Shown: positions 8,385 through 59,681 of the stretch, piece after piece
Position numbering within the stretch: the stretch's first letter is position 1
Layout: each line of letters opens with the position of its first letter
Origin: Megaustenia siamemsis
Lineage: Eukaryota > Mollusca > Gastropoda > Stylommatophora > Ariophantidae
DNA: 64,000 nucleotides
Assembly: GCA_032433765.1 (NCBI GenBank)
Contig: JAVIAB010000046.1
Span: 60,981,388 to 61,045,387 of the forward strand
Direction: 5' to 3'
Translations under genes and position numbers: made by a program
Notes under the pieces: model-generated
What the model was told of the DNA's origin: nothing
Seen by the model: the letters and a program-made list of their open reading frames with translations, nothing else
The model's database searches: none

Positions 8385-9220
8385 TGTTGTTAGTATATTT
8401 TTCATGGCATTAAAATTACTTTTTGCCATACCTAATCTTTTGTTTATTTCAGTTTTGCATTTTCCATCATTGGTTATAGTATGTCCCAGGTAGTTGTAAC
8501 TCTAGACTGTCTCCAGATGTATTCCCTCAACTGTGATATTTAATTGTAGGTCTTGAGAATTTTCTTTGTTTATGATCATAGTTTTAGTCTTTTTGATATT
8601 CATTTCTGGTTCATATTTTTTGCTTGTTATGTTTTATCACATTAAGCAATTGTTGTAGGTCTTTAGGATTTTCTGCTAATAGAACAGTATCATCAGCATA
8701 TCTCAGGTTATTGATTATCTTTCCATTAATGTTTAGGCCTGGTATCTCTGAGATGTTTTTAAAGATTTGCTCAGTGTATAGACTGAACAAGCTTGGTGAT
8801 AGGATACATCCCTGTCTTACTCCTCTTTTTATGTCCATGGGTGTAGAGTTCTCCTTGTTATATCTTATTATTGCTGTTTGCTCCCAGTACAAATTACATA
8901 TTAGTCGTATGTCTGCGTCGTCTAGATTTATATCCTTTAGGCAGTTTATAAGTTGGTTATGGTGTATTCTATCGAAAGCTTTGGTGTAGTCTATAAAGCA
9001 GGCATATATTGATTTGTTTACTTCTGTGTACTTTTCAATCAATGTTCTCATGCTGAATATGGCTTCTTTTGTCCCACTGTTTTTCCTGAATCCAAATTGT
9101 TGCTCATCTAATTCAGTATTGATTTTATTCTGAATCCTTCCCTGTATAACTTTTAGTAAAATGTTTGTTACCTGGCTCATTAGGCTTATTGTTCTGAAGT
9201 CACTGCATCTCTTAGACAGA
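8385..9220 (-). mobile_element. LINE-A internal fragment (reverse transcriptase palm)
   Basis: The minus strand is open over 9279-8611 and encodes SDFRTISLMSQVTNILLKVI, DEQQFGFRKNSGTKEAIFSM, CFIDYTKAFDRIHH, RQGCILSPSLFSLYTEQIFK and LRYADDTVLLAENPKDLQQL, with an intact YADD box. The 5' limit is near 9220, where unrelated sequence replaces the expected LPKKNGAVEC. The 3' limit is near 8385, inside the segment that would read ILTT. Both ends are truncated. Confidence 0.85.
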
Positions 9221-10494: not shown

Positions 10495-10741
10495 GTCATC
10501 ATCATCGAGTGCCGTTTCTCCGCATCGAGGCTTTGGCCACCATGGAGCGTAGTTCCACTCTATCTCTTGCTTTGATGGCGCAGATTGTCATAGGCTGAAT
10601 TGTCCATCTTTTGATGTTACTCGTCCATGTTAGTCTTGGTCTGCCTCTGCCACTTTTACCTTGTATTTTCCCTCCAGGATTACTTTCAGTAGGCTGTTGT
10701 GTCTTTTAACATGCCCCAAAAATTTCATTTGTCTTGTTTCT
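10495..10741 (-). mobile_element. LINE-A 3'-end fragment
   Basis: On the minus strand this about 245-bp fragment encodes the last part of LINE-A: FLGHVKRHNSLL-like sequence, GKIQGKSGRGRPRLTWTSNI and ARDRVELRSMVAK. It ends with GATGATGATGACC. It sits in the 3' region of a pogo/Tigger-like relic. Confidence 0.85.
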
Positions 10742-10744
10742 GAT

Positions 10745-12060
10745 TAAAAAGTAGGTGCAGTATTTAATAAGTTAGCGCTGACTTCATTTATTACTGCTGG
10801 AAATATGACAGTCAACTTTTCTGCTTTGTTTTTTCAATAGCCTTTCGATGAGTGGCGCTGCATAAATTTCTCAGAATTAAATTTTCCAGGCAGTTACTGT
10901 CTTCTTTGTGTTCTAAGTAATCAAAAGGAGTTTTGACATGTGTTAGCGCAGAACTGTGACTTACGCTCACCTTCAGTATAAGGTCCCCTTTTTCTTCTGT
11001 GGGAGTTGGTTCATTTTGCACAGTTTCGATAACAGATTGTATGATTTCATCATCATTCAATATTTCATGTTTGGCTAAATTATTGTCTTTGTTTAACCAG
11101 CTGAAAACTGATACTGCCAAATGAGTCTGCCCCGATCGTTTACCTCTCTCTACTGATGGTGCAGAAGATTGCTTTTTTTAGACTTGTTTTGCTATCAATG
11201 GAACTTCGTCCTTTTCTTGTGAATTTCCTATAACTAAAATATGTATAATATACAGTGCGAAGAGTAAGCTTTATTTTCCTTTTACAGCATTTAGATTGAG
11301 GTATTTATTGATTTTTGATAAATTTTTAAACTCTGATGATTTTTATTAAAACTTCTACAAACTTAAGCAGCAAATTTTGGTGATAAATTGCTTTTAGATT
11401 CTGAGTCATTCCTTGGTCCATGGGTTATATTAATTCTGTTAAACTTGTAGGTAAATACTTAACAGAAATATTCCCACTTCAAAAAGTTCCTCACTCGTGT
11501 GACTAGGTGCTGTGTCTAAAGTAATAGAGCTTTCTATGGCAAACCAAGAGATTTAAGATGTTGACATACTAGTGGAATGAAGTTAGTTTTAACCAGTCCG
11601 TAAATATTTCTCTATCCGGCCATGCTGACTTATTGTAATAATAATTAACAGGTAAATTATTAACATCTTTAACTTTAGAAAATATCAGGGTTTTCTTGCA
11701 GTTCTAATAACTAATAGTTTTAGAAAACAAGACCAGAAGTATTACCACAGCACAAAACCGTGAGACGTTATTTGTAAATCTTATGTCCTGGAGCACTTAG
11801 TTCGCATTCATGCACTACAGTTTTCCTTGGCAAACACTTCCAATACAATCCTGTTTCATCAACATTGTTTCTTCAATAAATGTTCAGGTTTTTAACCTTC
11901 CTTCTCTATGGAATTGTGATATGAAGTCTTTAGTTGTTTGCTCATCACTGCTGAGTTTTTCTTCTTGAATGGCAATCTGACAAATTCCATGTCTTTCCTT
12001 AAACCAAGTCAACCAGCCAGAGGAATTATTAAACTCCTTGGATAATTTGAGTTTGTCATT
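10745..12060 (-). pseudogene. pogo/Tigger-like (Tc1/mariner superfamily) transposase, broken
   Basis: Reading the minus strand from 12102 gives a CENP-B-type helix-turn-helix end (KEFNNSSGWLTWFKERHGIC), EEKLSSDEQTTKDFISQFH, and then in other frames NVDETGLYWKCLPRKTVV, where the D is the first catalytic aspartate. Next come NKSAWPDREIFTDWL, a YLPTSLTELI-PMDQGM segment, and a C-terminal open piece at 11120-10812. This order is that of Tigger/jerky-type DDE transposases, which cut and paste DNA in the nucleus. The relic has several stops and frameshifts. The N-terminus is missing where it meets a piggyBac-like relic at about 12060. A LINE-A fragment is inserted near its 3' end. Confidence 0.8.
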
Positions 12061-14707: not shown

Positions 14708-17700
14708 TTGCAACACGGCTGTGCAATACCAGACAGTCGAGAGCGTTACAACACGGCTGTGCAATACCAGACAGTCGAGGGCGTTACAACACGGCTGTGC
14801 AATACCAGACAGTTGAGGAAGTTACAACATGGCTGTGCAATACCAGACAGTCGAGAGCGTTACAACACGGCTGTGCAATACCAGACAGTCGAGAGCGTTA
14901 CAACACGGCTGTGCAATACCAGACAGTCGGGGGCGCTACAACACGGCTGTGCAATACCAGACAGTCGAGGGCGTTACAACACGGCTGTGCAATACCAGAC
15001 AGTCGAGGGCGTTACAACACGGCTGTGCAATACCAGACAGTCGAGGGCGTTACAACACGGCTGTGCAATACCAGACAGTCGAGGGCGTTACAACACGGCT
15101 GTGCAATACCAGACAGTTGAGGAAGTTACAACACGGCTGTGCAATACCAGACAGTTGAGGGCGTTACAACACGGCTGTGCAATACCAGACAGTCGAGGGC
15201 GTTACAACACGGCTGTGCAATACCAGACAGTCGAGGGCGTTACAACACGGCTGTGCAATACCAGACAGTCGAGGGCGTTACAACACGGCTGTGCAATACC
15301 AGACAGTCGAGGGCGTTACAACACGGCTGTGCAATACCAGACAGTCGAGGGCGCTACAACACGGCTGTGCAATACCAGACAGTTGAGGAAGTTACAACAC
15401 GGCTGTGCAATACCAGACAGTCGAGGGCGTTACAACACGGCTGTGCAATACCAGACAGTCGAGGGCGTTACAACACGGCTGTGCAATACCAGACAGTCGA
15501 GAGCGTTACAACACGGCTGTGCAATACCAGACAGTCGAGGGCGTTACAACACGGCTGTGCAATACCAGACAGTCGAGGGCGTTACAACACGGCTGTGCAA
15601 TACCAGACAGTCGAGGGCGTTACAACACGGCTGTGCAATACCAGACAGTCGAGGGCGTTACAACACGGCTGTGCAATACCAGACAGTCGAGGGCGTTACA
15701 ACACGGCTGTGCAATACCAGACAGTCGAGGGCGTTACAACACGGCTGTGCAATACCAGACAGTTGAGGAAGTTACAACACGGCTGTGCAATACCAGACAG
15801 TCGAGGGCGTTACAACACGGCTGTGCAATACCAGACAGTCGAGGGCGTTACAACACGGCTGTGCAATACCAGACAGTCGAGGGCGTTACAACACGGCTGT
15901 GCAATACCAGACAGTCGAGGGCGTTACAACACGGCTGTGCAATACCAGACAGTCGAGGGCGTTACAACACGGCTGTGCAATACCAGACAGTTGAGGGCGT
16001 TACAACACGGCTGTGCAATACCAGACAGTCGAGGGCGTTACAACACGGCTGTGCAATACCAGACAGTCGAGGGCGTTACAACACGGCTGTGCAATACCAG
16101 ACAGTTGAGGAAGTTACAACACGCTGTGCAATACCAGACAGTCGAGGGCGTTACAACACGGCTGTGCAATACCAGACAGTCAAGAGCGTTACAACACGGC
16201 TGTGCAATACCAGACAGTTGAGGGCGTTACAACATGGCTGTGCAATACCAGACAGTCGAGGGCGTTACAACACGGCTGTGCAATACCAGACAGTCGAGGG
16301 CGTTACAACACGGCTGTGCAATACCAGACAGTCAAGAGCGTTACAACACGGCTGTGCAATACCAGACAGTTGAGGAAGTTACAACACGGCTGTGCAATAC
16401 CAGACAGTCGAGGGCGTTACAACACGGCTGTGCAATACCAGACAGTCGAGGGCGTTACAACACGGCTGTGCAATACCAGACAGTCGAGGGCGTTACAACA
16501 CGGCTGTGCAATACCAGACAGTCGAGGGCGTTACAACACGGCTGTGCAATACCAGACAGTTGAGGAAGTTACAACACGGCTGTGCAATACCAGACAGTCG
16601 AGGGCGTTACAACACGGCTGTGCAATACCAGACAGTCGAGGGCGTTACAACACGGCTGTGCAATACCAGACAGTTGAGGAAGTTACAACACGGCTGTGCA
16701 ATACCAGACAGTCGAGGGCGTTACAACACGGCTGTGCAATACCAGACAGTCAAGGGCGTTACAACACGGCTGTGCAATACCAGACAGTCGAGGGCGTTAC
16801 AACACGGCTGTGCAATACCAGACAGTCGAGGGCGTTACAACACGGCTGTGCAATACCAGACAGTTGAGGGCGTTACAACACGGCTGTGCAATACCAGACA
16901 GTCGAGGGCGTTACAACACGGCTGTGCAATACCAGACAGTCAAGGGCGTTACAACACGGCTGTGCAATACCAGACAGTTGAGGAAGTTACAACACGGCTG
17001 TGCAATACCAGACAGTCGAGGGCGTTACAACACGGCTGTGCAATACCAGACAGTCAAGAGCGTTACAACACGGCTGTGCAATACCAGACAGTCGAGGGCG
17101 TTACAACACGGCTGTGCAATACCAGACAGTCGAGGGCGTTACAACACGGCTGTGCAATACCAGACAGTCGAGGGCGTTACAACACGGCTGTGCAATACCA
17201 GACAGTCAAGAGCGTTACAACACGGCTGTGCAATACCAGACAGTTGAGGAAGTTACAACACGGCTGTGCAATACCAGACAGTCGAGGGCGTTACAACACG
17301 GCTGTGCAATACCAGACAGTCGAGGGTGTTACAACACGGCTGTGCAATACCAGACAGTCGAGGGCGTTACAACACGGCTGTGCAATACCAGACAGTCGAG
17401 GGCGTTACAACACGGCTGTGCAATACCAGACAGTCGAGGGCGTTACAACACGGCTGTGCAATACCAGACAGTTGAGGAAGTTACAACACGGCTGTGCAAT
17501 ACCAGACAGTCGAGGGCGTTACAACACGGCTGTGCAATACCAGACAGTCGAGGGCGTTACAACACGGCTGTGCAATACCAGACAGTTGAGGAAGTTACAA
17601 CACGGCTGTGCAATACCAGACAGTCGAGGGCGTTACAACACGGCTGTGCAATACCAGACAGTCGAGGGCGTTACAACACGGCTGTGCAATACCAGACAGT

Positions 17701-17740
17701 CGAGGGCGTTACAACACGGCTGTGCAATACCAGACAGTCG
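14708..17740 (+). repeat. 38-bp satellite array, about 80 monomers
   Basis: A 38-bp monomer containing ACAACACGGCTGTGCAATAC and CAGACAGTCGAGGGC runs without a gap over 3.0 kb. Sequence variation is concentrated in the last eight bases (TCGAGGGC, TCGAGAGC, TTGAGGAA, TTGAGGGC, TCAAGAGC). Because 38 is not a multiple of three and the monomer has no stop in any plus-strand frame, long apparent reading frames arise in all three plus frames as 38-residue protein repeats. I do not treat them as genes. One monomer near 16117 has lost a base. The TTGAGGAA variant recurs at spacings that are multiples of 38, with an 8-then-7 monomer pattern seen twice. Confidence 0.95.
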
Positions 17741-17759
17741 AAAGACAACAACACCTAAC

Positions 17760-19500: not shown

Positions 19501-20100
19501 TAATATGGTTATGGAAGGCCCTGGTATCACTGTAAACGAATTATAATCCATAATTGCTCAACCGCCCATGCCAGTGGAATCATCCAAATTAATATCTCAT
19601 CTCCCAAACAAAGAAAGGTAGCTGCAGTCCCCATCACAGCAGTCTCAGCACATAAAAGACATGAGGCAAAACCGCACAGAAAGTGAACACAGCCAACTGT
19701 TCACCGTCATACGATATCATCATTCATCGTAAGCAATCACAATATTGAAATACGCTTAATACAGATGAAACACACAGCTCACAGTGTGCACAGAGCACTT
19801 AACCCAGTAGCTCTGGCAGCAAGCCAGATTTCGGAATATGAAGAAACTGCAACAAGGAACACTTTTATGAGTTTAACATTTCTAGCCGCCTTACCACCAT
19901 ATCGACCGGAAGTTCATGTCCTACTAAAAATGTTGATTGTCATTTTTTTTGTATGTATAGCACTTGATGATGTACACTTCCGGTGTCATGGCGGCTTCGT
20001 GTAGTCGATTTTTATAATTCGGCTCTTGCTGATATATTTAAATGATTTACGCGACAGTCTAGTTGTGAAATTATGTGTTGCTATTCTCCCGTTTGGTGTA
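19501..20100. other. Unassigned interval with a dispersed repeat (19835-19985)
   Basis: No gene recognised. The stretch 19835-19985 is similar to the reverse complement of 52385-52560: both contain GAAACTGCAACA, CGACCGGAAGTTCATGTC-like sequence, AAAATGTTGAT and CTTGATGATGT. It is therefore a dispersed repeat of unknown class lying just upstream of the full-length LINE-A. Confidence 0.5.
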
Positions 20101-20115
20101 TGTTTTACTTCTAAC

Positions 20116-23100
20116 GTGGGGATGGACTGTGATTGCCGATATTTAAGTGGAATATGATTTATTCTTCTTTGTGTTGTGTGTTCGCGGTTCGATAGGCAAG
20201 CACATGGTTTGACAAAAATGTCAACGGAAAAACGGGTATGTTCAACCCTTATGTGAAAAGTCTGTGACGGTGGATGGAGGTGGAGGAATCAAGAATGATC
20301 AACGGCCCAGAAAGCGAAAACAGCAAAGTGTGTGGTACACAAGAGGCATGTTCAGAACACGAAAGACGAACATGGCTGACCACCGTGAAAGAGATTGGAG
20401 CCTCATCACGTACTAGTCCAGAGGAAGCCATGGAGAGTCGGAGAAATTCGAACTTATGTCGGAGGAAAGATCTTAAAATAAGTACTTGGAATGTTAGGAC
20501 TCTATATCAACAAGGGAAATTGGAAAATCTAATTCAAGAAGCAGAACGAATAAATATAGATATTTTAGGCATATCAGAGACTAGATGGAAGGAATGTGGG
20601 TACATTGAAGACGAAAAATATACATTTATATACTCAGGAAACACAACAGAACATCAAAGGGGGGTAGGAATACTGATAAAAAGAGAGCTACAAAAATATA
20701 TAAGTACCCACTGGACATACAGTGATAGGATTATACTACTCAAGTTGAAAGCAAAACCATTCGACATAGCAATAATACAGACATATGCACCTACTCAAGA
20801 CTACACAGATGAACAAATAGAGGCATACTATGAAGACCTAAATAAAGTTATGAAGCAAGTGAAATCTTCAGACATCTTGATTGTAATGGGTGACATAAAC
20901 GCTAAAGTAGGAAAAGGTAGATATAAGACAATTATAGGAAATCATGGTTTAGGAAAAAGAAATGACAGAGGAGAAAGATTAATACAATTCTGTGAAGAAC
21001 ACAGGCTGATAATATGCAACACCTACTTTGAGCAAGAGAAAAGGAAACTATACACATGGAAAAGCCCTGGAGATAGGAAGAGGAATCAAATAGATTACAT
21101 AATGATAAAAGAAAGGTTCCGTAACAGCGTAAAGAAAGCCAAAACCTACCCAGGAGCAGATATTAATTCTGATCACAATCCTGTATGATTAAAATGAAAA
21201 TCAAACTAAAGAGAAACAAGCAAAAATCTGATTCATCAACAAACCCACTCGACATAACAGCTTTAAATCAAAAAGATATTAAAGATACCTATACAATACA
21301 AGTAAAGAACACATACCAGAAGCTGCTAGAGGAGGAATTGAACAATACAGAAGAGAAAATCCTGATGAAAAAGTAACAACCAAATGGCAATGCATAAAGA
21401 AAAGCATACAAAAAGCCTGCGACACCTTACCCAAAAGAGAAAAGAACAAAAAACAAAAATGGATAACTAACACCATCTTAGAAAAAATGGAAGAAAGGAG
21501 ACAAGCGAAGAACACTGCCCAATACAATAAAATAGATAATGAGATACGCAAAATGTGCAAAAAGGCAAAAGAAGACTGGCTCAGCCAAAAATGTATAGAA
21601 ATAGAAACTATGGAAAGCAAACAAGACCTAAGAGGAATGCACACAGAAATAAGGAGAATGACTAATAAAAATAAAAAAGCCACAGAAGGTGGATGCATTG
21701 CAGACAAAAAAGGAAAAATGCTAACAGACAATAAGGATATCATAGATAGATGGCAGGAATATATAACAGAACTATTTCATGATCAAAGGGACAAGAAACC
21801 AGTTATAAAATGTACATCAGGCTATAAAAATCTTAAAATCTGAGGTGGAAAAAGCTATAAAAACAATGAAAAGGGGAAAAGCAGCAGGACCTGAAAGCAT
21901 ACAGATAGAGATGATACAGGCACTTGAAGATTTTGGCATTGAAGTGATTACAGACATATGCAACGACATATACCACACAGGATACATACCAAATGAACTA
22001 AAAACATCAACTTTCATTGCATTGCCTAAAAAGAATGGTGCAGTTGAATGCAGTGACTTTAGAACAATAAGCCTAATGAGCCATGTTACAAAAATCTTGC
22101 TAAAAGTTATACAAGGAAGGATTCAGAATAAAATCAATACTGAATTAGATGAGCAGCAATTTGGATTTAGGAAAAATAGCGGACAAAAGAAGCCATATTC
22201 TGCATGAGAACATTAATCGAAAAATACACAGAAGTAAACAAACCAATATATGCCTGCTTCATAGACTACACCAAAGCTTTTGATAGAGTACACCACAAAC
22301 AACTTATAGAATGCCTAAAAGAGATACATCTAGATGACATGGATATACGACTAATATGCAATCTATACTGGGAGCAAACAGCAATAATAAAATATAACAA
22401 AGAGTTCTCTACACCCATTGATATAAAAAGAGGAGTAAGACAAGGATGCATCCTATCACCAAGCTTGTTCAATCTATACACTGAGCAAATCTTTAAAAAC
22501 ATCATAGAGATGCCAGGCCTACAAATTAATGGAAAGATAATCAATAACCTAAGATATGCTGACGATACTGTACTACTAGCAGAAAATCCTAAAGACCTAC
22601 AACAATTACTTAATGAAATAAACACGACAAGCAAAAAATATGGACTAGATATGAATATCAAAAAGACTAAAACTATGATCATAAACAAAGAAAATACTCA
22701 AAACCCACAAATGGATATCAAAATTGAAGGAATAGACCTTGAGACAGTTCAGAACTACAACTACCTTGGACATACTATAACCAGTGATGGAAAATGTACA
22801 ACTGAAATAAACAAAAGAATAGGAATGGCAAAAAGTAATTTTAATGTCATGAAGGACATACTAACATCAAAACAAATAACACCAGAGCTAAAACTAAGAA
22901 TAGCAAAATGTTACATCTTCTCAATATTCCTATATGGTGCTGAAACATGGACATTAGACAAGAAAACAGAACAGAGAATTGAAGCCTTTGAAATGTGGAT
23001 ATATAGAAGAATAGGTAGAATTGGATGGAAGGAAAAGAAAACAAATGACAAAGTCTTAAAACAACTAAAAATGAAAAGAGAACTTCTGAACACAATTAGA

Positions 23101-23349
23101 ACAAGACAAATGCGATTCTTAGGCCATGTTAAAAGACACAACAGCCTACTGAAAGTGATCCTGGAGGGGAAAATACAAGGTAAAAGAGGCAGAGGCAGAC
23201 CAAGATTAACATGGACGAGTAACATCAAAAGATGGACAAATCAACCGATGACAACCTGCACCATCAAAGCAAGAGATAGAGCAAAATGGCGCTCCATGGT
23301 AGCCAACCTTCGTTGCGGAGACGGCACTCAATGATGATGATGATGATGT
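20116..23349 (+). mobile_element. LINE-A, full-length or nearly so (RTE-like, about 3.2 kb)
   Basis: This is the most complete retrotransposon in the window. A 5' region of about 160 bp is shared with the copies starting near 33255 and 47900. It is followed by a single long coding region and an ATGATGATGATGATGATG tail at 23330-23349. RTE elements have one roughly 1,000-residue protein with an N-terminal endonuclease and a C-terminal reverse transcriptase and end in short tandem repeats, as seen here. Its 3' flank (from about 23350) is repeated after the next copy. Confidence 0.9.
20274..23337 (+). pseudogene. LINE-A endonuclease/reverse transcriptase, broken by four single-base indels
   Basis: The coding region starts at the ATG at 20274 and, if read through the breaks, would give about 1,020 residues. 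Endonuclease motifs are KISTWNVRTLYQQGKLENLI, the E of GISETRW, YAPTQDYTD, VMGDINAKVG and SDHNPV. Reverse-transcriptase motifs are FIALPKKNGAVECSDFRTIS, QQFGFRKNSG, CFIDYTKAFDRVHH, RQGCILSPSLFN and YADDTVLLAEN. The C-terminus has GRGRPRLTW. Frame breaks near 21187, 21333, 21826 and 22180 are each one base gained or lost in a homopolymer, compared with the other copies. The protein would nick target DNA and copy its own RNA into it. Whether the breaks are biological or consensus errors is unresolved. Confidence 0.9.
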
Positions 23350-23624
23350 TAGAACATTGTTTTTGTCTCTAATCCGAACATATGAAAGAGTTATTCATCA
23401 GATTATCCTCATCGTACATCGTACAACAGTCCGTAAGTGCCCAGATTGGGTGTAATTATGAAAGGTGGAAGACTCGGTAGCAGAGTAGTTAATGCGCTTG
23501 CCACTGACCAGTAGAGTGCAGGTTCAATTGCCAAATGTGGCAATTTTTTTTCAGACCAACAAGTTTAGAGAATCACTCAGTCTCTCTCCAAAAATGGGTA
23601 CCAGAGATTTTTTTTCTACGAAGT
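23350..23624 (+). repeat. Intercopy flank with tRNA-like SINE (first copy)
   Basis: This about 280-bp flank is repeated at 26124-26404. It contains a tRNA-derived module: an A-box-like CGGTAGCAGAGTAGTTAATG at 23475-23494 and a B-box-like GCAGGTTCAATTGCC around 23518-23532, 44 bp apart, followed by a T-rich stretch. This looks like a SINE head, not a functional tRNA, since the acceptor arms do not pair. Confidence 0.6.
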
Positions 23625-23635
23625 AAAGATGGTTT

Positions 23636-26123
23636 TTTTATGAAGCAAGTGAAATCTTCAGACATCTTGATTGTAATGGGTGACATGAACGCTAAGGTAG
23701 ATATAAGACAATTATAGGAAATCATGGTTTAGGAAAAAGAAATGACAGAGGAGAAAGATTAATACAATTCTGTGAAGAACACAGGCTGATAATATGTAAC
23801 ACCTACTTTGAGCAAGAGAAAAGGAAACTATACACATGGAAAAGCCCTGGAGATAGGAAGAGGAATCAAATAGATTACATAATGATAAAAGAAAGGTTCC
23901 GTAACAGCGTAAAGAAAGCCAAAACCTACCCAGGAGCAGATATTAATTCTGATCACAATCCTGTAATGATTAAAATGAAAATCAAACTAAAGAGAAACAA
24001 GCAAAAATCTGATTCATCAACAAACCCACTCGACATAACAGCTTTAAATCAAAAAGATATTAAAGATACCTATACAATACAAGTAAAGAACACATACCAG
24101 AAGCTGCTAGAGGAAGGAATTGAACAATACAGAAGAGAAAATCCTGATGAAAAAGTAACAACCAAATGGCAATGCATAAAGAAAAGCATACAAAAAGCCT
24201 GCGACACCTTACCCAAAAGAGAAAAGAACAAAAAACAAAAATGGATAACTAACACCATCTTAGAAAAAATGGAAGAAAGGAGACAAGCGAAGAACACTGC
24301 CCAATACAATAAAATAGATAATGAGATACGCAAAATGTGCAAAAAGGCAAAAGAAGACTGGCTCAGCCAAAAATGTATAGAAATAGAAACTATGGAAAGC
24401 AAACAAGACCTAAGAGGAATGCACACAGAAATAAGGAGAATGACTAATAAAAATAAAAAAGCCACAGAAGGTGGATGCATTGCAGACAAAAAAGGAAAAA
24501 TGCTAACAGACAATAAGGATATCATAGATAGATGGCAGGAATATATAACAGAACTATTTCATGATCAAAGGGACAAGAAACCAGTTATAAAATGTACATC
24601 AGGCTATAAAATCTTAAAATCTGAGGTGGAAAAAGCTATAAAAACAATGAAAAGGGGAAAAGCAGCAGGACCTGAAAGCATACAGATAGAGATGATACAG
24701 GCACTTGAAGATTTTGGCATTGAAGTGATTACAGACATATGCAACGACATATACCACACAGGATACATACCAAATGAACTAAAAACATCAACTTTCATTG
24801 CATTGCCTAAAAAGAATGGTGCAGTTGAATGCAGTGACTTTAGAACAATAAGCCTAATGAGCCATGTTACAAAAATCTTGCTAAAAGTTATACAAGGAAG
24901 GATTCAGAATAAAATCAATACTGAATTAGATGAGCAGCAATTTGGATTTAGGAAAAATAGCGGGACAAAAGAAGCCATATTCTGCATGAGAACATTAATC
25001 GAAAAATACACAGAAGTAAACAAACCAATATATGCCTGCTTCATAGACTACACCAAAGCTTTTGATAGAGTACACCACAAACAACTTATAGAATGCCTAA
25101 AAGAGATACATCTAGATGACATGGATATACGACTAATATGCAATCTATACTGGGAGCAAACAGCAATAATAAAATATAACAAAGAGTTCTCTACACCCAT
25201 TGATATAAAAAGAGGAGTAAGACAAGGATGCATCCTATCACCAAGCTTGTTCAATCTATACACTGAGCAAATCTTTAAAAACATCATAGAGATGCCAGGC
25301 CTACAAATTAATGGAAAGATAATCAATAACCTAAGATATGCTGACGATACTGTACTACTAGCAGAAAATCCTAAAGACCTACAACAATTACTTAATGAAA
25401 TAAACACGACAAGCAAAAAATATGGACTAGATATGAATATCAAAAGACTAAAACTATGATCATAAACAAAGAAAATACTCAAAACCCACAAGTGGATATC
25501 AAAATTGAAGGAATAGACCTTGAGACAGTTCAGAACTATAACTACCTTGGACATACTATAACCAGTGATGGAAAATGTACAACTGAAATAAACAAAAGAA
25601 TAGGAATGGCAAAAAGTAATTTTAATGTCATGAAGGACATACTAACATCAAAACAAATAACACCAGAGCTAAAACTAAGAATAGCAAAATGTTACATCTT
25701 CTCAATATTCCTATATGGTGCTGAAACATGGACATTAGACAAGAAAACAGAACAGAGAATTGAAGCCTTTGAAATGTGGATATATAGAAGAATAGGTAGA
25801 ATTGGATGGAAGGAAAAGAAAACAAATGACAAAGTCTTAAAACAACTAAAATGAAAAGAGAACTTCTGAACACAATTAGAACAAGACAAATGCGATTCTT
25901 AGGCCATGTTAAAAGACACAACAGCCTACTGAAAGTGATCCTGGAGGGGAAAATACAAGGTAAAAGAGGCAGAGGCAGACCAAGATTAACATGGACGAGT
26001 AACATCAAAAGATGGACAAATCAACCGATGACAACCTGCACCATCAAAGCAAGAGATAGAGCAAAATGGCGCTCCATGGTAGCCAACCTTCGTTGCGGAG
26101 ACGGCACTCAATGATGATGATGA
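23636..26123 (+). mobile_element. LINE-A, 5'-truncated copy 2
   Basis: The copy starts within the endonuclease (MKQVKSSDILIVMGDMNAKV) directly after AAAGATGGTTT (23625-23635) and ends at an ATG-repeat tail. The frame from 23882 is open for 525 codons and includes the linker and most of the reverse transcriptase up to YADDTVLLAENPKDLQQLLN. It is then broken at 25446 and 25850 by single lost A residues. A 12-bp deletion after MNAKV is shared with copy 3 but not with copy 1, so copies 2 and 3 descend from one insertion. Confidence 0.9.
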
Positions 26124-26404
26124 TGATGTTAGAACATTGTTTTTGTCTCTAAATCCGAACATATGAAAGAGTTATTCATCAGATTATCCTCATCGTACAT
26201 CGTACAACAGTCCGTAAGTGCCCAGATTGGGTGTAATTATGAAAGGTGGAAGACTCGGTAGCAGAGTAGTTAATGCGCTTGCCACTGACCAGTAGAGTGC
26301 AGGTTCAATTGCAAATGTGGCAATTTTTTTTCAGACCAACAAGTTTAGAGAATCACTCAGTCTCTCTCCAAAAATGGGTACCAGAGATTTTTTTTCTACG
26401 AAGT
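26124..26404 (+). repeat. Intercopy flank with tRNA-like SINE (second copy)
   Basis: This is nearly identical to 23350-23624. Differences seen are single-base length changes in short homopolymers. It carries the same A-box-like and B-box-like pair and leads into AAAGATGGTTT at 26405-26415. Confidence 0.8.
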
Positions 26405-26415
26405 AAAGATGGTTT

Positions 26416-28897
26416 TTTATGAAGCAAGTGAAATCTTCAGACATCTTGATTGTAATGGGTGACATGAACGCTAAGGTAGATATAAGACAATTATAGGAAA
26501 TCATGGTTTAGGAAAAGAAATGACAGAGGAGAAAGATTAATACAATTCTGTGAAGAACACAGGCTGATAATATGTAACACCTACTTTGAGCAAGAGAAAA
26601 GGAAACTATACACATGGAAAAGCCCTGGAGATAGGAAGAGGAATCAAATAGATTACATAATGATAAAAGAAAGGTTCCGTAACAGCGTAAAGAAAGCCAA
26701 AACCTACCCAGGAGCAGATATTAATTCTGATCACAATCCTGTAATGATTAAAATGAAAATCAAACTAAAGAGAAACAAGCAAAAATCTGATTCATCAACA
26801 ACCCACTCGACATAACAGCTTTAAATCAAAAAGATATTAAAGATACCTATACAATACAAGTAAAGAACACATACCAGAAGCTGCTAGAGGAAGGAATTGA
26901 ACAATACAGAAGAGAAAATCCTGATGAAAAAGTAACAACCAAATGGCAATGCATAAAGAAAAGCATACAAAAAGCCTGCGACACCTTACCCAAAAGAGAA
27001 AAGAACAAAAAACAAAAATGGATAACTAACACCATCTTAGAAAAAATGGAAGAAAGGAGACAAGCGAAGAACACTGCCCAATACAATAAAATAGATAATG
27101 AGATACGCAAAATGTGCAAAAAGGCAAAAGAAGACTGGCTCAGCCAAAAATGTATAGAAATAGAAACTATGGAAAGCAAACAAGACCTAAGAGGAATGCA
27201 CACAGAAATAAGGAGAATGACTAATAAAAATAAAAAAGCCACAGAAGGTGGATGCATTGCAGACAAAAAAGGAAAAATGCTAACAGACAATAAGGATATC
27301 ATAGATAGATGGCAGGAATATATAACAGAACTATTTCATGATCAAAGGGACAAGAAACCAGTTATAAAATGTACATCAGGCTATAAAATCTTAAAATCTG
27401 AGGTGGAAAAAGCTATAAAAACAATGAAAAGGGGAAAAGCAGCAGGACCTGAAAGCATACAGATAGAGATGATACAGGCACTTGAAGATTTTGGCATTGA
27501 AGTGATTACAGACATATGCAACGACATATACCACACAGGATACATACCAAATGAACTAAAAACATCACTTTCATTGCATTGCCTAAAAAGAATGGTGCAG
27601 TTGAATGCAGTGACTTTAGAACAATAAGCCTAATGAGCCATGTTACAAAAATCTTGCTAAAAGTTATACAAGGAAGGATTCAGAATAAAATCAATACTGA
27701 ATTAGATGAGCAGCAATTTGGATTTAGGAAAATAGCGGGACAAAGAAGCCATATTCTGCATGAGAACATTAATCGAAAAATACACAGAAGTAAACAAACC
27801 AATATATGCCTGCTTCATAGACTACACCAAAGCTTTTGATAGAGTACACCACAAACAACTTATAGAATGCCTAAAAGAGATACATCTAGATGACATGGAT
27901 ATACGACTAATATGCAATCTATACTGGGAGCAAACAGCAATAATAAAATATAACAAAGAGTTCTCTACACCCATTGATATAAAAAGAGGAGTAAGACAAG
28001 GATGCATCCTATCACCAAGCTTGTTCAATCTATACACTGAGCAAATCTTTAAAAACATCATAGAGATGCCAGGCCTACAAATTAATGGAAAGATAATCAA
28101 TAACCTAAGATATGCTGACGATACTGTACTACTAGCAGAAAATCCTAAAGACCTACAACAATTACTTAATGAAATAAACACGACAAGCAAAAAATATGGA
28201 CTAGATATGAATATCAAAAAGACTAAAACTATGATCATAAACAAAGAAAATACTCAAAACCCACAAGTGGATATCAAAATTGAAGGAATAGACCTTGAGA
28301 CAGTTCAGAACTATAACTACCTTGGACATACTATAACCAGTGATGGAAAATGTACAACTGAAATAAACAAAAGAATAGGAATGGCAAAAAGTAATTTTAA
28401 TGTCATGAAGGACATACTAACATCAAAACAAATAACACCAGAGCTAAAACTAAGAATAGCAAAATGTTACATCTTCTCAATATTCCTATATGTGCTGAAA
28501 CATGGACATTAGACAAGAAAACAGAACAGAGAATTGAAGCCTTTGAAATGTGGATATATAGAAGAATAGGTAGAATTGGATGGAAGGAAAAGAAAACAAA
28601 TGACAAAGTCTTAAAACAACTAAAAATGAAAAGAGAACTTCTGAACACAATTAGAACAAGACAAATGCGATTCTTAGGCCATGTTAAAAGACACAACAAC
28701 CTACTGAAAGTGATCCTGGAGGGGAAAATACAAGGTAAAAGAGGCAGAGGCAGACCAAGATTAACATGGACGAGTAACATCAAAAGATGGACAAATCAAC
28801 CGATGACAACCTGCACCATCAAAGCAAGAGATAGAGCAAAATGGCGCTCCATGGTAACCAACCTTCGTTGCGGAGACGGCACTCAATGATGATGATG
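26416..28897 (+). mobile_element. LINE-A, 5'-truncated copy 3, with TSD
   Basis: This 2.48-kb insertion has the TSD AAAGATGGTTT at 26405-26415 and 28898-28908. Its sequence matches copy 2 almost base for base. Frame breaks near 26515, 26803, 27569, 27731, 27746 and 28492 are all one-base homopolymer losses. Only a few substitutions were noticed (for example the NNLL in place of NSLL near 28697). YADDTVLLAEN and other catalytic motifs are intact. Confidence 0.9.
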
Positions 28898-28908
28898 AAA
28901 GATGGTTT

Positions 28909-33253: not shown

Positions 33254-34939
33254 TGAGAGTGGATGGACTGTGAACGTTACCGATATTTAAATGAAACATG
33301 GTTTATTCTTCTTTGTGTCATGTGCTCGCGTTTCGACAGGCAAACACATAGTTCAACAACAATGGCGCCCGGCAGTTATGTCCAAACCGAATGTAAAAGG
33401 TCTGTGATGGTGGATGGAGTGGAAGAATCAGAAATGATCAATTGCCCAGAAAGCAAAAACAGCAAAATGTGTGGTACACATGAGGCATATTCAGGACACG
33501 ATAGATGAATATGGCAGACCACGGTGAAAGAGATTAGAGCCTTATCACATAACATTCCAAAGAAAGCCATGGAGAGAGGAAGAATGCTAACAGATAACAA
33601 AGATATGATAGATAGATGGCAGGAATATATAACAGAATTATTTCATGACAAAAAAACATTTATAAAATTTATGTCCAGTTACAATTACAAAGGACAAGCG
33701 GTAGGGTTCGATCCCAACCGACGGCTTCCGGGTTCACCCAGCCCTTAATGGGCACCTGATTTTTTTCAGGGAAAGTGAAGCGGCACGGGAGTATTACCGA
33801 CCACATTACCCCAAAAATCATGTGTCAAAGGTCTGTAAAATATATGGTCACTAACACCATATTCCCTATGCGCCACTTGGCGTGACGGGGATACTTTACT
33901 TTTTTTTTTTACGTCCAGCTATAAAATCCTGAAATTTGAAGCAGAAAAAGCTATAAGAACAATGAAAAAGGTAAAAGCAGAAGGATCTGACAATATACAG
34001 ATCGAGATGATACAAGCACTAGAAGATTTTGGCATTGAAGTGATCACAGACATATGCAATGACATATACCATACAGGATACATACCAAATGAACTAAAAA
34101 CATCAACTTTCATTGCATTACCTAAAAAGAATGGTGCAGTTGAATGCAGTGAATTAGAACAATAAACTTAATGAGCCAGGTAAAAAAATTGTTACTAAAT
34201 TTGTATAGGGGAGGATTAAGAATAAAATCAAAACTGAATTAGATGAGCAGCAATTTGGATTCAGGAAAAATAGTGGGACAAAAGAAGTCATATTCAGCAT
34301 GAGGACATTAATTGAAAAATACATAGAAGTAAACAAACCAATATATGCCTGCTTCATAGACTACACCAAAGCTTTTGATAGAATACACCATAATCAACTT
34401 ATAGACTGCCTAAAAGATATATTTCTGGACGATACAGACATACGACTAATATGTAATTTGTACTGGGAGCAAACAGCAATAATAAAATATAACAAGGAGA
34501 ACTCTACACCCATTGATATAAAAAGAGGAGTAAGACAACGATACATCCTATCACCAAGCTTGTTCAATCTATACACTGAGCAAATCTTTAAAAACATCAC
34601 AGAGATGCCAGGCTTAAACATTAATGGAAAAATAATCAATAACCTAAGACATGCTGATGATGATACTGTACTACTAGCAGAAAATCCTAAAGATCTAAAA
34701 CAATTAATTAATGTAATAAACATGACAAGCAAAAAATATGAACTAGATATGAATATCAAAAAGACTAAAACTATGATCATAAACAAAGTAAATTCTCAAG
34801 ACCTACAATTAAATATCAAAGTTTAAGGAATACATCTGGAGACAGTTCAGAGCTACGACCTGGGACATGCTATAGCCAGTGATGGAAAATGTATAACTGA
34901 AATAAACAATAGAATAGGTATGGCAAGAAGTAATTTTAA
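33254..34939 (+). mobile_element. LINE-A copy with internal deletion, left part (hosts SINE and piggyBac-like insertions)
   Basis: The 5' region and N-terminal codons match 20116-20420 (MVDGVEESEMINCPESKNSK). At about 33577 it jumps from the AME codons to KGRMLTDNKDMIDRWQEYIT, so the endonuclease and linker (about 1.3 kb) are deleted. The reverse transcriptase follows with EMIQALEDFGIEVITDICND, CFIDYTKAFDRIHH and LRHADDDTVLLAENPKDL. The YADD box has become HADDD and RQGCILSP has become RQRYILSP, so this copy is inactive. It is interrupted at TTAA (34936-34939). Confidence 0.9.
33684..33911 (+). mobile_element. tRNA-derived SINE nested in LINE-A, 5'-truncated
   Basis: This is the same family as 29485-29754 in the opposite orientation. 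It starts just before the B box (GGTTCGATCCC), with the A box lost, and ends in a T-rich tail. The flanks ATGTCCAGTTACAA (about 33671) and ACGTCCAGCTATAAA (about 33911) look like a diverged TSD of the LINE-A sequence. Confidence 0.8.
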
Positions 34940-38283: not shown

Positions 38284-38520
38284 TTTATTTGTGTTGGTTG
38301 TTTATCTCCAATTTTTCTATTTACATGTCTTGTGTCATCTTGGCATTGGTGGAATCTGATTCCTTGTTCAATTATCTAAAATTCATATATAATATGTTAT
38401 GTGCTAGATAAATATAAAGCATGTAGATTGATGTTTTAAAACTATAAGGTCCATCAAAAATTTTGTCTCTGAAATCTCTTCTGTTGCGTCGATGAAAAGC
38501 TTCCGTGTGGAAAGAGTTAA

Positions 38521-39020
38521 TGCCATGAAAAATATATTAACATCAAACAAATAAAACCATGACTAAAACTAAGAATAGCAAAATGTTACATCTTCTCAAT
38601 ATTCCTGTATGGTGCAGAAACGTGGACATTAGACAAGAAAACAAAACAGAAAATTGAAGCCTTTGAAATGTGGATGTATAGAAGAATAGGTAGAATTGGA
38701 TGGAAAGAAAAGAAAACAAACAATGAAGTTTTAAAACAACTAAAAATGAAAAGAGAACTACTAAACACAATTAGAACAAGACAAATGAAAGAAATTTTTG
38801 GGGCATGTTAAAAGACACAACAGCCTAATAAAAGTAATATTGGAAGGGAAAATACAAGGTAAAAGAGGCAGAGGTAGACCAAGATTAAAATGGATGAGTA
38901 ACATCAAAAGATGAACAGGTTAGCCTATGACAATCTGCACCATCAAAGCAAGAGACAAAGTGGAATGGCACTCTATGGTAGCCAACCTTCGATGCGGAGA
39001 TGGCACACCTTGATGATGAT
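38521..39020 (+). mobile_element. LINE-A copy, right part (continues 33254-34939)
   Basis: This continues the LINE-A frame after the piggyBac-like insertion: NAMKNILTSNK, then LYGAETWTLDKKTKQKIEAF, IGRIGWKEKKTNNEVLKQLK, GKRGRGRPRLKW and the tail GATGATGATGAAGATGAAGA. Frame breaks near 38545 and 38795. Confidence 0.9.
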
Positions 39021-39032
39021 GAAGATGAAGAT

Positions 39033-39920: not shown

Positions 39921-39924
39921 AAAG

Positions 39925-41370
39925 ACTTGATCTAGACAATGGACAAATTTATTATAAAGGGCTAAAGATTTGGTCCAGACATTGGACAAATTTATTATAA
40001 AGAGCTAAAGAGTTGGTCCAGACATTGGACAAATTTATTATATGGAACTAAAGAGTTGGTCCAGACATTGGACAAATTTATTATAAAGAGCTAATGAGTT
40101 GGTCCAGACATTGGACAAATTTATTATGTGGAACTAAAGAGTTGATCCAGACATTGGACACATTTATTATAAAGAGTTAAAGAGTTGGTCCAGACATTGG
40201 ACAAATTTATTATAAAGAGCTAATGAGTTGGTCCAGACATTGGACAAATTTATTATGTGGAACTAAAGAGTTGATCCAGACATTGGACACATTTATTATA
40301 AAGAGCTAAAGAGTTGGTCCAGACATTAGACAAATTTATTATATGGAACTAAAGAGTTGGTCCAGACATTGGACAAATTTATTATGTGTAACTAAAGAGT
40401 TGATCCAGACATTTGACAAATTTATTATAAAGAGCTAATGAGTTGGTCCAGACATTGGACAAATTTATTGTAAAGAGCTAATGAGTTGGTCCAGACATTG
40501 GACAAATTTATTATAAAGAGCTAAAGAGTTGGTCCAGACATTGGACAAATTTATTATAAAGAGCTAATGAGTTGGTCCAGACATTGGACACATTTATTGT
40601 AAAGAGCTAATGAGTTGGTCCAGACATTGGACAAATTTATTATAAAGAGCTAAAGAGTTGGTCCAGACATTGGACAAATTTATTATAAAGAGCTAATGAG
40701 TTGGTCCAGACACTGGACAAATTTATTATAAAGAGCTAATGAGTTGGTCCAGACATTGGACAAATTTATTATAAAGAGCTAAAGAGTTGGTCCAGACATT
40801 GGACAAATTTATTATATGGAACTAAAGAGTTGATCCAGACATTGGACACATTTATTATAAAGAGCTAAAGAGTTGGTCCAGACATTGGACAAATTTATTA
40901 TATGGAACTAAAGAGTTGGTCCAGACATTGGACAAATTTATTATGTGGAACTAAAGAGTTGATCCAGACATTGGACAAATTTATTATAAAGAGCTAATGA
41001 GTTGGTCCAGACATTGGACAAATTTATTATAAAGAGCTAATGAGTTGGTCCAGACATTGGACAAATTTATTAAAAAGAGCTAAAGAGTTGGTTCAGACAT
41101 TGGTCAAATTTATTATATGGAACTAAAGAGTTGGTCCAGACATTAGACAAGTTTATTATATGGAACTAAAGAGTTGATCCAGACATTAGACAAGTTTATT
41201 ATATGGAACTAAAGAGTTGGTCCAGACATTAGACAAGTTTATTATATGGGACTAAAGAGTTGGTCCAGACATTAGACAAGTTTATTATATGGGACTAAAG
41301 AGTTGGTCCAGACATTAGACAAGTTTATTATATGGAACTAAAGACTTTCTCCAGACAAAAGACAAATTGT
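39925..41370. repeat. 43-bp minisatellite, about 33 units
   Basis: The unit contains GAGTTGGTCCAGACATTGGA and CAAATTTATTATAAAGAGCT. Two variants alternate: one ends TAAAGAGCTAAA/TAATGA and one ends TATGGAACTAAA. The last five units (from 41120) share ATTAGACAAGTTTATTATAT, a local homogenised block. It lies in the intron between CUB1 and CUB2. Confidence 0.95.
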
Positions 41371-42737: not shown

Positions 42738-43640
42738 TCATTGCTCTCCGAACATGTCCATTAGGTGCTCAGATCCCCTCCTCAGCAATTCCTGCAGTAT
42801 CCAGCGACTGACAGCTCCAGTCCTGTGCCGATTGATAAGTCTTCTTACACGCCCATTAAGTTTCTCATTTCTGGCTGTGTCCATCTTAACTCCCATTTCC
42901 ATCATCTGAAGAAGTGACATGGATCTGTGTTTGTGGAAGTCCTGTGCTCTTCCCACATCTCGGAGGGCATTGATGATGTCCGCCCGATCCATTGGTTACC
43001 TGTCCTCAATAACAGCACAGCTAATCAACCTGTCCGCTCTTTCATTTCCCTGTACTCCCGCATGTCCAGGGACATAGACAAAGGTGACCTTACGTATTTT
43101 GGATTTCTGCAACGACTCTACCCATTGCATGCGTACAGAGCCCACCTCCACTTTTTTAATCATGCTCAATGAATTACTCAGTATACATGCGTGGGTGTAG
43201 TCTTGTGACTCAAACCATTTGAATGCCTTGGTCACTGCCCTCGCCTCCATTGTCATGTTACTCATGGCCATGACGTATGCACCAATGTCTTCCTTGACTA
43301 TTCTGCCTGCCGAGCATGCTGTAAATGCCCATGCACTTCTTTGGTATCGTATTACAGATCCGTCTATATAGATGACTGCATCTTCATCATTGGTGTTATC
43401 GCAGATGAGACCGTTGACCTCAGCATTAGCCACGACTGGGTTCTGTTCCCTACTTTTCCTGTTGAGTGTGACAATACACGAGAAAGTCCCCTTGAATGAT
43501 GTAGGCATCAGTATCCACTCCTCACCAACGCTGATATTGGTAAGCCCACAGACCTGTTTGATGACATCTTCTGCTCGGCCCACCCATGATTTGCCTCTTT
43601 TTAGCTTGGCACCTTTCACTGTGTTGAGCACATGGTGCAA
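42738..43640 (-). pseudogene. LINE-D RNase H domain and C-terminus
   Basis: The interval 43640-42996 is open and encodes AVIYIDGSVIRYQRSAWAFT (first catalytic D), NMTMEARAVTKAFKWFESQD (E), ACILSNSLSMIKKVEVGSVR, where a serine occupies the usual D position, and VYVPGHAGVQGNERADRLIS (H and last D). The next frame gives the C-terminal block INALRDVGRAQDFHKHRSMS and GRVRRLINRHRTGAVSRW, also found at 3482-3747. The D-to-S change would abolish RNase H catalysis if it is not a misread. Confidence 0.8.
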
Positions 43641-43782
43641 TGGATGCTCTGTATCTGTACTAATCTTCAGGTATGCTCATGCTCTCCAGATCTTGATTCT
43701 GTCATCCAAGGTTGGAAAGTCAAGAAGATACCTCATTGCTATTTTCTTATTCATTCATTTTGTATTTTCTCCAGCCTATCAA

Positions 43783-43926
43783 GCCAAGGAGAGAAATTCT
43801 AACTACTGTTTTAGGACAAGTCAATCTATGTCAGCCTGCACCATCAAAGCAAGAAACAGAGTAGAATAGCGATCCATGGTAGTCAACCTTCGTTGCGGAG
43901 AAGGCACACGATGATGATAATGATGA
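43783..43926 (+). mobile_element. LINE-A 3' fragment nested in LINE-D, with 13-bp TSD
   Basis: The duplication TCCAGCCTATCAA at 43770-43782 and 43927-43939 brackets a 144-bp insert. It holds the last about 110 bp of LINE-A (CAAGTCAATCTATG through GAAGGCACACGATG) and a GATGATAATGATGA tail. About 32 bp at its left (GCCAAGGAGAGAAATTCTAA onward) are not LINE-A and could be filler added at the 5' junction. Confidence 0.9.
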
Positions 43927-46065
43927 TCCAGCCTATCAATTTGAGTCGTACTGACAGTAAGAATTCAAGAATTGCCAGGGCATACTCGATTGGTGCGAGG
44001 ACTAATCCCTGGAACAGAAGAGTAAGTAGCCTCTGCTTGATGTTGGCAGCTGCCATGACCTTCAGGGTGGCTAATCCTTTGCGGGATTTTGTTATCACAT
44101 GGTCGACGTGGTCGCGAAAACACAGACTGCGATCAAACTTAAATCCGAGGTATGTCATCAACTTGTCCCTGGTCACCTCATCAGCTCCCATTCGTACTAC
44201 CGGTGTGGTCGTATTAACGATATGATTGCTAAGGGAGAACCATGAAACTGATGCTTTATTAGGATTAACCATGGCACCTGAAACCCCACACCAGGAAGAA
44301 ATGTGATCCAGTTCGTCTTGCATTGTGGAGGCGATTCCCCGTCTGCCTCTTCCCTGTCGATATACCAGAATATCATCAGCAAAAGTCATAGTTCTTCCCC
44401 TCCCATCCAGCTGTTGTCTGTGATCGTTATTGTGTACAGGTTAAATAGAACTGGTGACAATGGTGAGCCTTGTGCCTGGACAAATGGAAATTGGCTCAGA
44501 AGACCAACTTCCACATCTGAGTATCACCTTCCTCTGAAACAGTGCCACGGCGATCCATCTAATGAGGAAGGGGTGCACCGCCAGTTTGAGGAGCATATGC
44601 ATGAGATATTCAAATGGTAACCTGATGTATGGATCCTCCAGATCTATAGCAGCAGCACATGTCTCCTCTTGTCTGTGGAAGTCTTCAAAGACGTCATAGG
44701 CAAAGACTGCCACATTGAGCCATGTCTCTTTGTTATATCTATAACCACAGAGTGTGGGTGGGAATACGCGGATCTGTTCAAGGTGACAGGTGAGGACATG
44801 GGCAACTATTTTCTCCAGCAGCTTGCCCGCAGTGTTCTGCATTGTGATGATTCTGTAGGCACTGATCTGAGAATGGTCCTTGTTTGGCTTCGGTAGCGGT
44901 AGTAAGTAGCTGTGTAGCCACTCCTCCTTAATCTGGCCACTCCGAACACTGGCATTAAACTCATTGGCCAGTTTTGTCAAGTCGTCATCAGCTAAATCGC
45001 CTATGTCATCGTACCGAACACCATCTGGACCAGGAGCAGTGTAGCGTGACCTTTTAAATGTCGTGCAAATGGTATTAGCTGTGATTGTGAGATCTTCTTC
45101 CAACCCTACATCCTTACACAATTTTGACTGCGATCCCCGTATCCTCATTCTTACAATTAGGTGCATCATTTTTTGGTTGACCTCTACTTTCAGGCGCTTC
45201 AAGAGCTTAAGTTGTGTTCTTCCATTCCTTCTGGCTTTCTGCCATGTCTTGACCATTTGTCTCTTGCTCCGCGAAGCTTCGTCAGCATCTACATTCCACC
45301 AGGGTGGTTGCGTCCATCTCTCCTGCCTCCTACGAGGGGCGTGCTGTTTCCTATGTCTGATTTTGCTAATGACGTCCTGGTCTGTTTTCTCGTAGTTGAA
45401 TGTGTAGAGCTTTCTTTTCTGGCTTCTATTTCTGCTTTTCTCAATTAGGAGGACACATGGATAGTGATCACTTCCGTGGAACCCCAGTGCACTCAACCTG
45501 CAAACCGGTGCGAAGGTGGAAGACACCAGTGCCAGGTCAATGACACTATCAGAGTCCCCTGTTCGAGTGGCCATCCTTGATGCCCTACCATCATTCAAGC
45601 ACACTAAATCAGCCGACACCAGTGCGTTCTCTAGGTCTTCTCCCTGCTTGTTGGTTATGACGTTACCCCACTGATTTCCTCTAGCATTAAAGTCTCCGCA
45701 GAAAATGACGTTCTCTTCATCAAACTCGAAGAGATTCTGCCATTGTTGTGTGTTCGCCTTCCCATTACAGGCATACACACTAACAATCACGAAATGAACT
45801 GGGGTCTGCACCCTAGCCGCATGCACCTGCAATTCTGCATTGTCCCATGCAGACATATCAACCTCAGCTGCCACCATATTGTTGCGCACAAGGATGGCCT
45901 GCCCAAGGTGTCATCTATTGTAAAACAATGAAAGCCAGGAGTACTTACTGTCCTGTCACCAAGAAGAGTTTCTTGCAAAACCATTATATCGGCGCCACAC
46001 AGTAGCTTATCAAGAATGGGCCATTGTTGATTTATGGACCCACAATTCCAGTAAGTAACGTGCAC
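43883..46065 (-). pseudogene. LINE-D endonuclease/reverse transcriptase, frameshifted
   Basis: The endonuclease starts YWNCGSINQQWPILDKLLCG with the E of VLQETLLG and continues after a frame change at about 45888 with VSVYACNGKANTQQ, FCGDFNARGNQWGN and GFHGSDHYPC. Reverse-transcriptase motifs are RYTAPGPDGVRYDDIGDLAD, SAYRIITMQNTAGKLLEKIV, CAAAIDLEDPYIRLPFEYLM and, after another break at about 44441, MTFADDILVYRQGRGRRGIA, which holds the catalytic FADD. The D-P-Y in place of D-x-A/Y-F at motif A and the lost G-x-P-Q-G box suggest inactivity. Confidence 0.85.
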
Positions 46066-59180: not shown

Positions 59181-59681
59181 TAGTGACTTGGGCAGATGGT
59201 GCTCGTAAACCTGGGAGGGCTGACCATCTAAGGGCAGAATCCCCCTACAGAAAAGTCAACCTGCTGCCTTGCAGGAAGATTGGGGACAATCAAAGGCTAG
59301 GGAAAGCAAACCCGAATAAAATGCTGGCTGAAATCGGATGCACTGGGCCACTGGCGCAGAAAACAGTGCAACGTATTAACAGGTGTTCAATCAGAGTGGA
59401 TATGGCGAACTCTACTTGTGATGTTCTGTCTGTGGGGGCGACCAACACACTTAGCCTGACAGATGACTTCATGTGGGAGTCTGGAATCCTACTCCGATTG
59501 AGTCCTGATCGCAGAGAGAGAGAGAGAGATATATACTTGCTGGCGCATAAGCAAACATGCACACTTTCTTACACAAACTCTAATATGCAATGAATGAAAG
59601 AAGTCTGCTGGTTTGGAAAACATTTGCATCAGTTATCAGTCATATTATGACTTGCAGGAAGACTATCTGCTGCTGAAGTAG
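59181..59681 (+). other. Unassigned interval with a 136-codon open frame
   Basis: The plus strand is open from 59183 to 59593, but the predicted protein resembles nothing I know. Part of it (59240-59310) shares words with 56060-56215, so it is more likely dispersed-repeat DNA than a gene. An (AG)n run lies at 59515-59529. Confidence 0.4.

What the first reader, a model, noticed from the sequence alone, without database searches (positions are those of the whole stretch)
20274..28889. LINE-A reading frames are broken almost only by single-base homopolymer indels
In the three near-identical copies I counted about a dozen frame breaks. Each is a gain or loss of one base in a short A, G or C run, and each is private to one copy, while substitutions are very few. 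Neutral decay would give many substitutions and mixed indels. The pattern fits uncorrected long-read consensus error, so the real LINE-A may be intact and recently active.
Basis: partly seen in the sequence, partly recalled or inferred. Interest (0 to 1): 0.75.

Follow-up and report, generated by a model that had tools for sequence, protein, structure and literature searches.

The report
Snail LINE array with assembly errors
Three near-identical copies of a jumping gene in a land-snail genome look broken mainly because of small leftover sequencing errors, but only one of the three could ever be a working copy, and the middle one was made by a chromosome mispairing event rather than by jumping.

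Summary
In detail: the three LINE-A copies carry 12 single-base frame breaks (4, 2, 6), all in runs of two or more equal bases, each private within the array, beside six substitution sites.

The consensus-error reading is well supported. The array is a full-length LINE (c1), a 300-bp flank and a second, 5'-truncated LINE; the middle copy and a second flank fit unequal crossing-over. Segments identical at that duplication now differ by 0 substitutions and 10-11 single-base indels in 2,791 columns, non-coding flank included. Eleven young copies elsewhere show 64 private substitutions and 15 private indels. The genome matches Megaustenia siamensis: PacBio subreads, Canu, Pilon with 150-bp reads.

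Two corrections. c2 and c3 start inside the endonuclease domain and share a 10-bp deletion, so polishing cannot make them intact; only c1 could be. And c2 is recombination-born. Recent family activity is supported by 6,000 matches to one site pattern and many copies at least 98% identical, but none of five near-full-length young copies checked is fully open in this assembly.

Mostly an artefact laid over an ordinary, young, RTE-like LINE.

The parts
19975..23349 (+). c1: full-length LINE-A copy (LINE1): short 5' leader, one EN+RT reading frame, (TGA)n tail
   Evidence: 5' end ACTTCCGG shared with 2 of 3 copies compared (L043, L022; L019 begins a few bases further in); possible 9-bp TSD that cannot be told from the tail repeat; EN and RT domains
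20268..23334 (+). c1 reading frame, lying in five frame pieces (four single-base breaks); no in-frame stop attributable to a substitution seen
   Evidence: open frames; tblastn with P0001
23345..23639 (.). X1: non-coding 3' flank of LINE1, first copy
   Evidence: pairwise alignment with X2: 0 substitutions, 3 single-base indels
23625..23635 (+). left copy of the 11-bp target-site duplication AAAGATGGTTT, before c2
23640..26128 (+). c2: chimeric LINE-A copy: LINE2 sequence to 25539, LINE1 sequence from 25924, switch in between
   Evidence: c2=c3 at 4 of 4 left substitutions and the 10-bp deletion; c2=c1 at 2 of 2 right substitutions and the flank
25539..25924 (.). interval of the unequal crossing-over in c2
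26125..26418 (.). X2: second copy of the non-coding flank
26405..26415 (+). left target-site duplication AAAGATGGTTT, before c3
26419..28897 (+). c3: LINE2, 5'-truncated copy with a 10-bp deletion and six single-base breaks
28898..28908 (+). right target-site duplication AAAGATGGTTT, after c3

Best explanation
LINE-A is a young RTE-like non-LTR retrotransposon of the land snail Megaustenia siamensis. At this locus a full-length copy (LINE1, c1) sits about 300 bp upstream of a 5'-truncated copy (LINE2) that inserted by target-primed reverse transcription. Unequal crossing-over between the two LINEs made a chimeric middle copy and a second flank. Most of the single-base indels that break the frames are residual errors of the Canu consensus from PacBio subreads; Pilon left them because 150-bp reads cannot be placed among near-identical copies. 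Shown here: the array anatomy, the switch, the indel and substitution counts, the genome match. Inferred: that the indels are absent from the animal's DNA, that ambiguous short-read mapping is why they stayed, and the insertion and crossing-over mechanisms from their traces.
For: Segments that were identical at the duplication (c2/c3 left of the switch, c1/c2 right of it and in the flank) differ by 0 substitutions and 10-11 single-base indels in 2,791 columns (columns 1338-1340 there are one indel spread by the aligner). Flank copies alone: 0 substitutions, 3 indels in about 300 bp of non-coding DNA, so neither loss of coding constraint nor reverse transcription explains them. Eleven young copies elsewhere: 64 private substitutions, 15 private indels (10 of them in L036), 7 of 11 with no private indel in the 1.3-1.8 kb aligned; array 3 and 6; Fisher P=0.005, or 0.0002 without L036. 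At the young copies' indel share, 10 indels and no substitution has P about 6e-8. Assembly: scaffold N50 84,301,762 in the paper equals the length of contig C41; subreads, Canu defaults, Pilon with short reads (150-bp pairs). In a benchmark of bacterial nanopore assemblies 87% of Pilon's errors lay in homopolymers, and short-read polishers as a group left disproportionately many errors in multi-mapped regions (PMC11232133, passages; Pilon's own share there not seen).
Against: No reads could be inspected. The paper's abstract calls the long reads HiFi, which would make short-run errors unlikely; its methods describe subreads with a 0.80 quality cut. Four of the 12 frame breaks are in runs of only two bases. 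Most young copies elsewhere should be just as ambiguous for short reads, yet 7 of 11 carry no private indel in the aligned segment, so ambiguity alone is not sufficient; three of those seven do have frame breaks further upstream. The Fisher test leans towards my reading, because substitutions shared by the three related array copies do not count as private. In two satellites of the window TRF gives 0% indels where the array rate predicts 2.7 and 2.3 events, though one window of the 38-bp satellite is out of register: weak evidence that errors are local.
Confidence: 0.88

Rival explanations
1. The indels are real mutations: replication slippage in short runs after the duplication, making three true pseudogenes.
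For: Indels do accumulate in LINE copies; at one site 5 of the 100 listed family members differ in spacing.
Against: 0 substitutions beside 10-11 indels since the duplication, while young copies elsewhere have about four private substitutions per private indel. Runs of 2-5 bases are not known slippage hotspots (recalled).
Confidence: 0.08
2. The middle unit (c2 plus X2) is itself an assembly artefact, a false duplication with split read coverage and so a poorer consensus.
For: 0 substitutions between duplicated segments; the draft shrank from 3.07 to 2.6 Gb during polishing and clean-up, which included purge_dups, so redundant sequence was present.
Against: The array (under 9 kb) is shorter than the read N50 of 27 kb, and a single clean switch is what real unequal crossing-over gives.
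Confidence: 0.15
3. The indels were made by an error-prone reverse transcriptase when each copy was inserted.
For: Most of them lie in LINE sequence.
Against: The non-LINE flank copies carry the same kind of indel at a higher density, and c2 was not made by reverse transcription.
Confidence: 0.03

Closest known systems
RTE-like non-LTR retrotransposons (RTE/BovB group; clade name recalled, not tested by tree)
   Same: One frame with APE-type endonuclease and reverse transcriptase, no room for an upstream ORF1, short tandem-repeat tail, 5' truncation, TSD
   Different: Clade placement by phylogeny not done; the 120 best database proteins listed are 44-57% identical to the c2 piece
Predicted reverse-transcriptase-domain protein of Elysia chlorotica (P0012) and unnamed proteins of about 1,000 aa such as P0001
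   Same: 51% and 57% identity over 97% and 100% of the 587-aa query
   Different: Other hosts; P0001 comes from a 3.5-kb JGI contig of unnamed origin
Residual homopolymer indels in short-read-polished long-read assemblies (PMC11232133, passages)
   Same: Run-associated errors, over-represented where short reads multi-map
   Different: That benchmark is on bacterial nanopore assemblies, not PacBio Canu assemblies of animals

Membership tests
RTE-like non-LTR retrotransposon | APE-type endonuclease domain before the reverse transcriptase | tested here: met
   PF03372/PF14529 in the c1 5' piece; RVT_1 in c1 and c2 pieces
RTE-like non-LTR retrotransposon | Single ORF, no ORF1 | tested here: met
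   5' end at 19975 and frame open from 20268 leave under 300 bp upstream
RTE-like non-LTR retrotransposon | Short tandem-repeat 3' tail rather than poly(A) | tested here: met
   (TGA)n tail in c1-c3 and in 6 of 7 young copies checked; the motif used was not found in the seventh, L049
RTE-like non-LTR retrotransposon | Target-site duplication and 5' truncation | tested here: met
   11-bp TSD around LINE2, 5' truncated; for c1 the 9-bp repeat cannot be told from the tail
RTE-like non-LTR retrotransposon | RT phylogeny inside the RTE clade | not tested
   no tree built
Long-read consensus error | Indels without substitutions between recent duplicates, in coding and non-coding DNA | tested here: met
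   0 substitutions, 10-11 indels
Long-read consensus error | Indels absent from accurate reads | not testable with these tools
   no reads held
Unequal crossing-over product | Middle copy takes one parent's variants on the left and the other's on the right, with one switch | tested here: met
   left 4 of 4 substitutions plus deletion and 5' end; right 2 of 2 plus flank

The most novel reading that the evidence does not exclude
LINE2 is a direct daughter of LINE1, inserted about 300 bp downstream of its own parent, so c1 was functional when it jumped; the pair then mispaired and amplified. Two substitutions are shared by c1, c2 and c3 and absent from the other held copies in which the sites could be scored (0 of 25 and 0 of 14). 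If so, c1 is a recent source copy and the array may still vary in copy number between animals.
Probability: 0.3. Interest if true: 0.45.

Novelty: new member of a known kind. Interest (0 to 1): 0.3.

Why it matters
Young high-copy LINEs in short-read-polished long-read assemblies can look like pseudogenes when they are not, so counts of intact or active elements from such genomes may be too low. Recent tandem duplicates, non-coding flank included, give a read-free way to gauge this error. The locus also warns against counting tandem copies as separate insertions.

Tried and rejected
Rejected when a COX1 fragment in the genome matched Megaustenia imperator at 98%, next best 89%.

An inherited G-run frameshift: 14 of 20 fetched copies shared c1's state at that site, but the search that found them was evidently seeded on that stretch and missed c2 and c3. 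In a pattern search that leaves the site open, c1's state is in 0 of the 100 listed places (of 6,000), 95 of which have the in-frame spacing (counted by eye). Rejected as sampling bias. A first pattern had too narrow a gap for the in-frame spacing; its 39 places are all shorter forms.

Array-only variants across the whole genome: the searches did not complete (one pattern; a second alone). Only held copies were compared.

A fully open near-full-length copy: none of five young copies reaching to 20.6 kb or further upstream (L031, L034, L038, L043, L049) is open throughout. Three of 11 young copies, all 5'-truncated, are open over their whole matched length. A literature search for unequal crossing-over between RTE copies found 0 papers holding all six terms.

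Sample limits: of the first 27 places listed, all on C1, I fetched 20 and skipped 7 whose core had older-subfamily letters, so the sample leans young. Of the 20, 11 passed 98% identity to c2 over at least 1 kb; the other 9 were dropped. The private count there is strict: states shared with any other row are not counted, so it gives 6 array indels in that segment where a direct comparison gives 8.

Full report
What is there. The window lies at G000:C46:60981388-61045387 of a 2.59-Gb genome in 155 contigs. Between 19975 and 28908 it holds a LINE array. Copy c1 is full length: it starts at 19975 with a 5' end shared by 2 of 3 other copies compared (L043, L022; L019 begins a few bases further in) and ends in a (TGA)n tail. 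Its frame carries endonuclease and reverse transcriptase domains; sequence relatives with solved structures are LINE-1 ORF2 and R2 proteins. A non-coding flank of about 300 bp follows (X1, 23345-23639), then c2 (23640-26128), a second flank copy (X2), and c3 (26419-28897). c2 and c3 start at the same base, inside the endonuclease domain, and share a 10-bp deletion. The 11-bp word AAAGATGGTTT lies before c2, before c3 and after c3, as expected of the target-site duplication of a single truncated insertion.

How the array arose. At six substitution sites c2 agrees with c3 on the left (4 of 4) and with c1 on the right (2 of 2), with one switch between 25539 and 25924; the 5' junction and the deletion go with c3, the flank with c1. 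This is the product expected from unequal crossing-over between a full-length LINE1 and a truncated LINE2 about 300 bp downstream. c2 is therefore a recombination product, not an insertion. LINE1 and LINE2 share two substitutions seen in none of the other held copies in which the sites could be scored (0 of 25 and 0 of 14), so they probably have a close common source; gene conversion is not excluded.

The frame breaks. There are 12 single-base breaks in frame, c1 4, c2 2, c3 6, 11 losses and 1 gain, all in runs of two or more bases. The two flank copies add three indels and no substitution. Counting only segments that were identical when the duplication formed, there are 0 substitutions and 10-11 indels in 2,791 columns; the range reflects the stretch whose parent is undetermined (columns 1338-1340 there are one indel spread over several columns, as the raw letters show). 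In 11 young copies elsewhere the private counts are 64 substitutions and 15 indels, 10 of the indels in one copy, L036; 7 of 11 have none in the 1.3-1.8 kb aligned, though three of those seven have frame breaks further upstream. If the array's changes were drawn from that mixture, ten indels and no substitution would have P about 6e-8.

Where the errors come from. A COX1 fragment in the genome is 98% identical to Megaustenia imperator (taxonomy). The published Megaustenia siamensis assembly has a scaffold N50 of 84,301,762, exactly the length of contig C41 here, and 2,593,626,580 bases in 161 scaffolds against 2,591,239,911 in 155 here (PMC11178922; abstract, passages, sections 5 and 13 read). 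It was built from PacBio Sequel subreads with Canu, polished by Pilon with short reads (150-bp pairs), then purge_dups and HiRise. The abstract says HiFi, the methods say subreads with a 0.80 quality cut; I take them to be ordinary continuous long reads. In a benchmark of bacterial nanopore assemblies, 87% of Pilon's errors lay in homopolymers, and errors were disproportionate where short reads multi-map (PMC11232133, passages). I infer the same here. It is not a full account: 7 of 11 other young copies, which should be just as ambiguous for short reads, carry no private indel in the segment compared, so errors are patchy.

Is LINE-A intact and active? c2 and c3 cannot be intact whatever the polishing. 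c1's frame lies in five pieces, with no in-frame stop attributable to a substitution (the one stop counted there lies where two frame pieces overlap), so it may be intact in the animal. The family is young and large: one site pattern with 18 fixed bases occurs 6,000 times (3,009 + 2,991), older relatives and truncated copies included, and 11 of 20 fetched copies (at least 11 of the first 27 listed, 7 skipped) are at least 98% identical to c2 over 1 kb or more. Three of these 11 are open over their whole truncated length; none of five near-full-length ones is open throughout. Recent activity is thus supported genome-wide; present activity is not shown.

Verdict. The element is an ordinary RTE-like LINE (clade name recalled, no tree built); the frame breaks are mostly an assembly artefact.

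Noticed in passing
14711-17741: 38-bp satellite, about 80 monomers, TRF 0% indels (one window out of register), with several open frames of over 150 codons on the + strand.
   Followed up: partly
39921-41368: 43-bp satellite, about 34 monomers, TRF 0% indels; further arrays at 49774-50911 and 58034-59181.
   Followed up: partly
42996-45910 (- strand): A different LINE: a 489-aa EN+RT open frame and a separate RNase H open frame (Pfam).
   Followed up: no
1-1852, 8385-9208, 10496-10745, 33918-34939, 38517-39027: Older, about 85-90% identical relatives of LINE-A on both strands, with many substitutions and few gaps.
   Followed up: partly
L036 with L053 (G000:C1:5382666-5386799): A young LINE-A copy with 10 private indels and 6 private substitutions in 1.7 kb, a second indel-rich spot like the array.
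   Followed up: partly
L060 (G000:C151, near 10323780): A COX1 fragment of about 290 codons, open under the invertebrate mitochondrial code, inside a nuclear scaffold beside a repetitive tract: a recent mitochondrial insertion or a misassembly.
   Followed up: no
window:23461-23549: A short stretch in X1, repeated in X2, that looks like a tRNA-derived SINE head by eye; ARAGORN and Rfam found nothing in the window.
   Followed up: no
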